A DNA stretch of 7,594 nt from Fusobacteriota bacterium (GTDB lineage: Bacteria > Fusobacteriota > Fusobacteriia > Fusobacteriales > Fusobacteriaceae): the NCBI GenBank assembly GCA_003973585.1, contig QNYN01000003.1, forward strand, positions 1-7,594, written 5' to 3'. Positions 1,885 to 2,907 of the stretch are shown here, piece by piece. Within the stretch, counting starts at the first letter, position 1. Each line of letters begins with the position of its first letter. The notes below the pieces were generated by a model. The model ran no database searches. It saw only the letters and a list, made by a program, of their open reading frames with translations, and had not been told where the DNA came from. Both the position numbers and the translations under genes were made by a program.

Positions 1885-2907
1885 TTATTTCACCTCAATT
1901 CTATATTCACTTCTACCTATTACTTCTCCTACAATACTAGATGGAATTTCTAGTTCTTCTAGATCTTTTAAAAGTGATACAGCATCTTCTGGATCTACTG
2001 AAATTAATAGTCCACCAGAAGTTTGAGGGTCGAATAAAATTTCTTCCATAGCAAATCCTATATCATTTAATTTTACTGTATCTCCTAAATATTTTCTATT
2101 TTTCTGTCCTGCTGATGTGATGAAAAACTCATTAGCGTATTCAAAAGCTTCTTTGATATAAAGAACTTTTGAGCTATCTATAATCATACTAATATTGTCG
2201 TTTAGCATCTCAGAAAGATGTCCTAAAAATCCAAATCCTGTAATATCAGTGCATCCATTTACCCTATATTTTTTCATCTTTTCTGCTGAATATTTATTTA
2301 GTGTTTCCATTATTTGTATAGCTTCTTTATAAGATCTTTCATTAGCCTCTTCTACACTATGAGCAGTGGTAACTATTCCAATTCCTAAAGGTTTAGTTAA
2401 AATCAATTTATCTCCTACTTTACATGTATTATTAGCTATTATTTTATCTGGATGAACTATTCCAGTTATAGATAATCCATATTTTGGGTTGTCATCATTT
2501 ATAGAATGACCACCACTTAAAATTCCACCTGATTCCATTACTTTTTCTGCTCCTCCCCTCAAAATTTCTCCTAAAATTTTAGAATCCATTTTTTCTGGGA
2601 AACAAACAATATTTAATGCCGTAAGAACTTCTCCTCCCATGGCATATACATCACTAAGGGCATTTGCAGCAGCAATTTTCCCGTAAGTATAAGGATCTTC
2701 TACAATGGGAGTAAAGAAGTCTAAAGTTTGTATAAGTGCTTTGTCATCACTTATTTTATATACTGCAGCATCATCAGCACTATCAAAACCTATCAATAGA
2801 TTTTTATCATATGCCTTTGGAATGTGAGCTAATACCTTTGATAGAACACCCGGTCCTATTTTAGAAGTTCAGCCTCCTCCACTACAAAAATTTTCAAATT
2901 TATCCAT
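1885..2907 (-). CDS. selD: Selenide, water dikinase (selenophosphate synthetase), selenocysteine-containing
   Basis: SelD makes selenophosphate from selenide and ATP in the cytoplasm; this is the selenium donor for selenocysteine and for 2-selenouridine in tRNA. The true start is ATG 2907-2905, preceded by GGGAGGTAATAAG. Codon 13 (2871-2869) is UGA, set in CSGGG-U-TSK, exactly where other SelD proteins have catalytic Cys or Sec, with K16 matching the essential Lys of E. coli SelD (C17..K20). Reading UGA as Sec gives 340 residues, close to the usual family length. Other family marks are GFDSADDAAVY (40-50; ATP/Mg-binding aspartates), the T-D-F-F-T-P segment, ANALSDVYAMGG, SGGHSI, TDITGFGFLGH and DPQTSGGLL near the C-terminus. 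A gene caller that treats UGA as a stop would report only an internal 303-residue piece starting at TTG 2796, losing the active site. It leads the minus-strand operon. Confidence 0.95.
2841..2859 (-). promoter_or_regulatory. Bacterial SECIS element in selD mRNA
   Basis: The mRNA sequence ATAGGAC-CGGGT-GTTCTAT folds into a 7-bp stem (one G-U wobble) with a 5-nt loop. The loop begins 16 nt after the UGA and has G as its second base and U as its last, in line with the published model of bacterial SECIS elements (short stem-loop 16-37 nt downstream, G in the first two loop positions). It would recruit SelB with Sec-tRNA. It lies inside coding sequence (codons for about K16 to S23), so it is constrained both as RNA and as protein. 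Confidence 0.85.
2869..2871 (-). other. Selenocysteine codon (in-frame UGA, codon 13 of selD)
   Basis: The minus strand reads GGAGGC-TGA-ACTTCTAAA. The codon falls at the SelD catalytic position, the frame is open and SelD-like on both sides, a good ribosome binding site and ATG precede it, and a hairpin starts nine bases after it. Together these favour Sec insertion over a nonsense mutation. The upstream C8-S-G-G-G-U13 spacing resembles the Gly-rich catalytic loop of other SelD proteins. Confidence 0.93.

What the first reader, a model, noticed from the sequence alone, without database searches (positions are those of the whole stretch)
2841..2907. SelD is itself a selenoprotein, with the Sec codon and SECIS visible
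UGA is codon 13 at the catalytic position (CSGGG-U-TSK), with ATG and a strong ribosome binding site upstream and a hairpin (7-bp stem, CGGGT loop) starting 9 nt after it. Standard gene calling would drop the first 37 residues, including the active site. It also predicts that the genome has selA, selB and selC, and that SelD needs its own product for its synthesis.
Basis: partly seen in the sequence, partly recalled or inferred. Interest (0 to 1): 0.7.

Follow-up and report, generated by a model that had tools for sequence, protein, structure and literature searches.

The report
SelD enzyme with a selenocysteine active site
A fusobacterial gene for the enzyme that activates selenium appears to use a normally 'stop' codon to put selenium into its own active site; the arrangement is well known, but here the gene stands apart from its usual partner genes.

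Summary
On the minus strand an ATG at 2907 with a strong ribosome binding site opens a 340-codon SelD frame; codon 13 (2871-2869) is TGA at the catalytic position, and a 7-bp hairpin with loop CGGGU follows 9 nt later (2859-2841). The window alone is weak evidence (synonymous-codon null P 0.05-0.07), but relatives are decisive. Of 96 Fusobacteriales genomes, 48 have SelD with TGA at this codon; 48 of 48 have selA and selB, 46 of 48 selC. The nine codons after the UGA are letter-identical in the window and six Psychrilyobacter-like genomes (P 6.5e-6). Four core pairs form in 58 of 58 Sec-type genes against 4 of 8 fusobacterial and 2 of 68 other Cys-type genes; one pair switches A-U to G-C about four times. 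So this is a selenoprotein SelD, member of a well-known family. Interest is modest.

The parts
1885..2907 (-). selD, selenide water dikinase (selenophosphate synthetase), 340 residues with Sec at residue 13
   Evidence: NCBIfam TIGR00476 selD equivalog 391.1 bits (cut-off 125), Pfam AIRS and AIRS_C; aligned to solved SelD chains 3u0o_A and 2yye_A
2914..2920 (-). Shine-Dalgarno sequence GGGAGGT, 6 nt before the ATG
   Evidence: sequence; same letters in 6 of 6 Psychrilyobacter-like SelD genes
2905..2907 (-). ATG start codon
   Evidence: ATG at the same place in 6 of 6 Psychrilyobacter-like SelD genes
2869..2871 (-). in-frame TGA, codon 13, read as selenocysteine; aligns with residue 17 (Cys) of the solved SelD chain 3u0o_A
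   Evidence: TGA in 48 of 56 Fusobacteriales SelD genes, Cys in the other 8
2841..2859 (-). SECIS-like hairpin: 7-bp stem, loop CGGGU, inside the coding sequence
   Evidence: fold; pair counts; synonymous constraint; held-out covariance model hit at 2868-2839, 36.0 bits
1083..1883 (-). orphan 266-aa ORF directly downstream of selD, in the place where 42 of 48 related Sec-type genomes have selA
   Evidence: no NCBIfam or Pfam hit at E 0.001; no match in 25 related genomes (a search without positive control); 1 relative in the protein database
3091..4026 (+). cation diffusion facilitator transporter, divergent from selD
   Evidence: TIGR01297 223 bits, cut-off 82; 71-74% or 67-70% (tblastn) identical to copies in 5 of 8 Psychrilyobacter-like genomes
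4115..5257 (+). cysteine desulfurase family protein (TIGR01977), related to SclA, a possible selenium supplier
   Evidence: TIGR01977 451.9 bits (cut-off 377); SclA NF040779 345.7 bits, below its cut-off of 525

Best explanation
The gene at 2907-1885 (minus) encodes a selenocysteine-containing SelD. The ribosome starts at the ATG at 2907, meets UGA at codon 13, and SelB carrying Sec-tRNA(Sec) is recruited by the hairpin at 2859-2841, whose loop presents GG; Sec is inserted into the UxxK loop that handles selenium for selenophosphate synthesis. Shown here: intact frame on both sides of the UGA, catalytic position, conserved hairpin with covariation, co-occurrence with selA, selB and selC in relatives. 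Inferred: actual decoding, SelB binding, and that the host has selA, selB and selC elsewhere in its genome. The self-requirement (SelD product needed to make SelD) follows from the known pathway and was not tested.
For: SelD equivalog and frame intact across the UGA. TGA at this codon in 48 of 96 Fusobacteriales genomes, Cys in 8, no SelD in 40. selA/selB/selC over cut-off in 48/48/46 of the 48 TGA genomes, 3/3/3 of the 8 Cys genomes, 1/1/1 of the 40 without SelD (tallied in 38). Nine codons after the UGA identical in window plus six Psychrilyobacter-like genes, while 69 of 249 amino-acid-conserved degenerate codons are identical overall; hypergeometric P 6.5e-6. Core pairs 4 of 4 in 58 of 58 Sec-type genes, against 4 of 8 fusobacterial Cys-type and 2 of 68 other Cys-type genes. 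Mean pairs of 7 against a synonymous-codon null: 6.08 against 5.00 in 48 fusobacterial TGA genes, 4.28 against 4.23 in 69 other Cys-type loci. One core pair is AU 45, GC 10, GU 3, no mismatch in 58; its 3' side changes 4 times on a tree, the ten GC cases all with GGG (Gly) and GCT (Ala for Val). A model built without window or Psychrilyobacter-like rows scores the window 36.0 bits, fusobacterial Cys-type at most 29.0 (4 of 8 hit), other Cys-type at most 19.7 (2 of 68 hit at E up to 1). A 99% identical database protein has W where its source read the codon.
Against: The host genome is not held, so selA, selB and selC are not shown there, and selD is not in a cluster with them as in 48 of 48 related TGA genomes. 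The hairpin folds no better than shuffles and misses the published energy cut-off (-7.5 kcal/mol): -4.8 for the hairpin, -4.4 to -6.2 for stretches up to 70 nt from the UGA, -9.8 at 80 nt. Taken one by one, only 19 of 48 fusobacterial TGA genes beat the codon null for energy at P < 0.05. The outer two pairs are unpaired in 30 and 10 of 52 rows; 'pairs with a change on both sides' (2 against 1.7) and further pair types (7 against 7.4) do not exceed shuffles. Rfam gives nothing at its curated thresholds and two chance-level matches at E 7-8.
Confidence: 0.95

Rival explanations
1. The UGA is a real stop. SelD is made only from a downstream start (TTG at codon 38) or the gene is decaying after loss of selA and selB from its side.
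For: selD is outside a selA/selB cluster here; own machinery untested.
Against: The start region and the 12 codons before the UGA are kept as a coding frame with the same RBS; the nine codons after it are frozen; a protein starting at codon 38 would lack residue 13 and Lys 16.
Confidence: 0.03
2. UGA codes for tryptophan in this organism (code 4 style), as three database proteins read it.
For: P0002, P0003 and P0004 carry W at this position. None of the window's genes whose stop is seen ends in TGA, so the window itself does not show TGA as a stop.
Against: 14 TGG and no other in-frame TGA in the window's other genes (leaving out its out-of-frame slice of the gene at 7086); the position is Cys or TGA in all 136 SelD loci read (80, 56, three genomes in both), never TGG; the entries named Psychrilyobacter that I read start after the UGA.
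Confidence: 0.01
3. Sequencing or assembly error turned a Cys codon into TGA.
For: TGT and TGC are one base from TGA.
Against: TGA at the same codon in six of six Psychrilyobacter-like SelD genes and 48 of 56 Fusobacteriales genes; the 99% identical database protein shows W, not Cys, there.
Confidence: 0.005
4. This is a second, relocated copy of selD, with an ordinary selD-selA-selB cluster elsewhere in the same genome.
For: SelA proteins 75-80% identical to the Psychrilyobacter-like one exist in contigs without an organism name (P0148-P0154 among the 120 hits listed), so a sister lineage does carry selA; linkage to this host is unknown.
Against: Each of the 48 TGA genomes has one strong SelD match; second matches are at most about 31 bits.
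Confidence: 0.1

Closest known systems
Selenocysteine-type SelD (selenophosphate synthetase, TIGR00476, motif UxxK)
   Same: Same family, same motif U-T-S-K, Sec at the residue that aligns with Cys 17 of the solved chain 3u0o_A and Lys at its residue 20. [quoted passage not shown] a 2006 survey tables 38 SelD selenoproteins (PMC1794560, passages).
   Different: Nothing seen in the protein; the gene neighbourhood differs.
selD/selA/selB cluster of Fusobacteriales
   Same: The closest SelDs (82-85% identical) are in Psychrilyobacter-like genomes with selD-selA-selB in a row.
   Different: In the window selD is followed by an orphan ORF and a dprA paralogue; selA and selB are not within the 1,884 bases held downstream nor the 4,687 upstream.
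Bacterial SECIS element (bSECIS consensus model)
   Same: Stem 7 bp, loop 5 nt, G in the second loop position followed by G, 16 nt from UGA to loop: three of the four constraints quoted in PMC13188914 (passages).
   Different: Misses the fourth, an energy of -7.5 kcal/mol or lower, at 37 C on stretches from the UGA up to 70 nt.
SclA selenocysteine lyase encoded in a selD-containing operon of Enterococcus faecalis (PMC13188914, passages)
   Same: A related cysteine desulfurase family protein (TIGR01977) lies two genes away from selD.
   Different: Scores under the SclA cut-off (345.7 of 525) and is on the other strand.

Membership tests
SelD, selenide water dikinase | Curated SelD profile above cut-off | tested here: met
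   TIGR00476 391.1 bits, cut-off 125, residues 5-308; NF002098 314.4 bits, cut-off 299
SelD, selenide water dikinase | AIR-synthase N- and C-terminal domains | tested here: met
   PF00586 and PF02769 above cut-off
Selenocysteine-type SelD | UGA at the catalytic Cys position, motif UxxK | tested here: met
   codon 13 TGA, U-T-S-K, aligned to Cys 17 and Lys 20 of 3u0o_A
Selenocysteine-type SelD | Host has selA, selB and selC | not testable with these tools
   own genome not held; relatives 48, 48 and 46 of 48
Selenocysteine-type SelD | Sec present in the protein | not testable with these tools
   needs mass spectrometry or 75Se labelling
Bacterial SECIS (consensus model quoted in PMC13188914) | 3-9 nt apical loop and 4-16 bp upper stem | tested here: met
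   5 nt and 7 bp
Bacterial SECIS (consensus model quoted in PMC13188914) | G in one of the first two loop positions | tested here: met
   C-G-G-G-U
Bacterial SECIS (consensus model quoted in PMC13188914) | 16-37 nt between UGA and loop | tested here: met
   9 + 7 = 16 nt
Bacterial SECIS (consensus model quoted in PMC13188914) | Minimum free energy at or below -7.5 kcal/mol | tested here: not met
   -4.8 for the hairpin, -4.4 to -6.2 for stretches from the UGA up to 70 nt; -9.8 at 80 nt; -7.6 to -14.5 if 6 nt before the UGA are included; -9.9 for 46 nt at 15 C, an arbitrary temperature. I therefore call it SECIS-like and rest its function on the comparative evidence, not on this filter.
Bacterial SECIS | Structure kept with covariation in Sec genes and mostly lost in Cys genes | tested here: met
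   core pairs 58 of 58 against 2 of 68 and 4 of 8; A-U to G-C exchange about 4 times
SclA selenocysteine lyase (neighbour at 4115-5257) | NF040779 above its cut-off | tested here: not met
   345.7 of 525 bits

The most novel reading that the evidence does not exclude
In this lineage selD has left the selD/selA/selB cluster and stands alone, divergent from a metal transporter and near a desulfurase, so that its UGA at codon 13 acts as an autonomous selenium switch: without selenium translation aborts after a 12-residue peptide, and selenophosphate supply is no longer tied to SelA and SelB output. The separate position is seen directly; the switch is untested.
Probability: 0.2. Interest if true: 0.45.

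Novelty: new member of a known kind. Interest (0 to 1): 0.25.

Why it matters
It is a sound, ordinary case of a selenium-activating enzyme that itself carries selenium. Its practical value is annotation: the database copies of the closest relatives that I read (P0002-P0011, P0015) are cut short or translated with Trp, so their active site is missing or wrong. The comparative set (58 Sec-type and 76 Cys-type genes, with a fossil hairpin in four Ilyobacter-like Cys genes) is a clean example of how a hairpin inside a coding sequence can be supported, and shows a protein residue (Val or Ala) changing together with its RNA pairing partner.

Tried and rejected
Rejected: UGA as Trp, as a sequencing error, or as a true stop (see rivals). 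Folding energy as proof: the single-sequence z-score is 0.13; Rfam gives nothing above its thresholds. The 7-bp stem as the conserved unit: RNAalifold keeps only the inner four pairs, and the outer two are often broken. Promoter and terminator scan of 1850-3110: 7 promoter-like sites against 7.4 in shuffles, 1 terminator-like against 0.4, not used. Viral contigs: 3 pattern matches, none a SelD relative; phages: no match to the window in near mode; plasmids: 23 records with 60-80% identical selD stretches and 3 with short matches to neighbouring genes. Hunting the host by its neighbours: the desulfurase is 70-72% and the dprA paralogue 46-47% identical to Psychrilyobacter-like genomes where found, so the host looks like a sister lineage of Psychrilyobacter rather than one of the held species.

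Row handling: one search kept the best 80 of 91 loci. In one search the groups 'other TGA' (11) and 'other Cys' (69) contain L056, L064 and L055, the same genomes as G003, G001 and G002; they were dropped (9 and 68). The 68 other Cys-type loci are mostly Bacillota but include two Treponema, one Adiutrix and one unnamed bacterium. One search used 42 distinct sequences of the 48 fusobacterial Sec genes, plus window and 9 others; one search left out window and the Psychrilyobacter-like rows. One search's slice of the gene at 7086 was out of frame and is not used. Two TGA genomes (G003, G050) lack selC over the cut-off; that search ran with stricter filters that lose weak matches. The selA match of G048 is split over two contigs; one search used one piece, another the other.

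Full report
What is in the sequence. The Shine-Dalgarno GGGAGGT (2920-2914), ATG (2907), twelve codons, TGA (2871-2869), a 9-nt spacer, and a hairpin of 7 pairs with loop CGGGU (2859-2841) lie in one frame that continues to TAA at 1885. The protein is SelD by NCBIfam (TIGR00476, 391.1 bits against a cut-off of 125) and Pfam, and the UGA codon aligns with Cys 17 of the solved chain 3u0o_A. Without the UGA the first usual start is TTG at codon 38, giving 303 residues.

How strong is the window by itself? Not very. The fold of 46 nt is average among shuffles. When the amino acids are kept and codons redrawn from the window's usage, seven of seven pairs occur with P 0.069 and an equal energy with P 0.051. 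The case therefore rests on relatives.

Relatives. Ninety-six Fusobacteriales genomes were searched: 48 have a SelD with one in-frame TGA, 8 have an uninterrupted SelD, 40 have none; one search reads the codon in all 56 (48 TGA, 5 TGT, 3 TGC). The Sec machinery follows: selA, selB and selC over the curated cut-offs in 48, 48 and 46 of the 48 TGA genomes; 3, 3 and 3 of the 8 Cys genomes; 1, 1 and 1 of the 40 others (tallied). The nearest SelDs, 82-85% identical, are in six genomes of the group G054-G061. In 80 named loci (best 80 of 91; three of them Fusobacteriota genomes that are also in the set above) 69 had Cys and 11 TGA.

Constraint on the RNA. In the window and the six Psychrilyobacter-like genes the UGA and the nine codons after it are identical letter for letter, the longest such run in the stretch compared (the next is four codons). 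Of 249 degenerate codons with conserved amino acid, 69 are identical in all seven, so nine of nine has P 6.5e-6. The codons just before the UGA do vary. Over 49 fusobacterial (window included) and 9 other Sec-type genes, the four core pairs are all formed in 58 of 58; in Cys-type genes they are formed in 4 of 8 (Fusobacteriales) and 2 of 68 (others). The loop base 19 nt after the UGA is G in 58 of 58; it is also G in 62 of the 68 other Cys-type genes and in 3 of the 8 fusobacterial ones, so that base alone proves nothing. Against a synonymous-codon null, fusobacterial TGA genes have 6.08 of 7 pairs where 5.00 are expected, other Cys-type loci 4.28 where 4.23 are expected; gene by gene only 19 of 48 TGA genes pass P < 0.05 for energy. 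Pair counts on 52 distinct rows give 86.5% of cells paired against 81.9% in shuffles and 27-51% for slid structures; cells with both sides changed are 16 against 3.5; but the number of pairs with a double change (2 against 1.7) and of further pair types (7 against 7.4) is not above shuffles. One core pair shows A-U 45, G-C 10, G-U 3 and no mismatch; on a midpoint-rooted FastTree tree of 58 SelD proteins its 3' side changes four times, and all ten G-C cases have GGG for Gly and GCT (Ala) where the others have GTT or GTC (Val). A covariance model built without the window and the Psychrilyobacter-like rows finds the window's hairpin at 36.0 bits; the four Ilyobacter-like Cys genes reach 26-29 bits (a fossil hairpin), the other four fusobacterial Cys genes nothing, and 2 of 68 other Cys loci at most 19.7 bits.

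Against. The hairpin misses the energy cut-off of the published model, quoted in PMC13188914 (passages), on stretches from the UGA up to 70 nt at 37 C; the other three constraints are met. I therefore call it SECIS-like by that filter and functional by comparison. SelA proteins 75-80% identical to the Psychrilyobacter-like one exist in contigs without an organism name, as a sister lineage should have, but nothing ties them to the window.

In 42 of the 48 TGA genomes the selA match starts 30-71 nt after the selD match and selB follows 24-106 nt after selA; in the other 6, selB and then selA come after selD, with selB starting about 1.0-1.4 kb downstream. So 48 of 48 keep the three together. In the window the gene after selD is a 266-residue ORF without a match in 25 genomes and with a single relative in the protein database, then a dprA paralogue that runs off the window. 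Upstream and divergent is a CDF transporter followed by a desulfurase, a pair that one Psychrilyobacter-like genome (G060) also has, there followed by genes that look like cysK and cysE (named by eye) and mnmH. So selD moved, or was copied, in this lineage.

How annotation handles it. The closest database protein, 99% identical and 340 aa, has W at the UGA, as have two more (P0002-P0004); five entries named Psychrilyobacter start at MGPG (324 aa; the codon is ATA in all six held genes); unnamed close copies of 315-317 aa start later. Those I read lose or alter the active site.

Known or new. [quoted passage not shown] PMC4561486, PMC5029168, PMC1088965, PMC2398784 and PMC1242214 were seen as passages only. 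A library search for Psychrilyobacter with selenoprotein gave one paper, on laying hens, and one for Fusobacteri, selenocysteine and SelD gave four, of which I opened only PMC5029168, whose shown passages on Fusobacteria concern the Se-cofactor. In those searches I saw no report of this gene. Verdict: real, well supported, ordinary in kind; new member of a known kind.

Noticed in passing
window 1083-1883 (-): Orphan 266-aa, Lys/Glu-rich ORF with no Pfam or NCBIfam hit and a single other cluster (95% identical) found in the protein database of 5.8 billion, sitting where most relatives have selA.
   Followed up: partly
L159 (reverse strand) and L162 from 1498; counterpart window 3-1064 (-): The dprA paralogue has an in-frame TGA near its N-terminus at the same codon in 2 of 5 Psychrilyobacter-like genomes where it was found; the other three have Leu, Ser, Ser and the window Thr; no Cys and no clear SECIS-like hairpin.
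   Followed up: partly
L081, L095, L098, L100: Four Ilyobacter-like SelDs have Cys but keep the core stem with the loop changed, apparently a fossil SECIS; three of these genomes have selA, selB and selC over cut-off, the fourth (G002) none of them.
   Followed up: partly
P0002, P0003, P0004: Database proteins with Trp where the Sec UGA is expected, probably from automatic choice of genetic code 4 on short AT-rich contigs (the cause is my guess, their DNA was not seen).
   Followed up: no
G054-G061: GrdA (a known selenoprotein) matches in 7 of 8 Psychrilyobacter-like genomes, with an in-frame TGA in 6 of them (the seventh match is a fragment), and selenouridine synthase matches in 8 of 8, so SelD is not the only use of selenium there.
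   Followed up: partly
G021:C8:413482-414815 and G029:C1:615186-616513: The selA matches are split into two pieces with stops inside in two Sec-type genomes, a sign of a frameshift or assembly error.
   Followed up: no
P0012: A 436-aa Cys-type SelD carries two internal stretches in duplicate, probably an assembly artefact.
   Followed up: no
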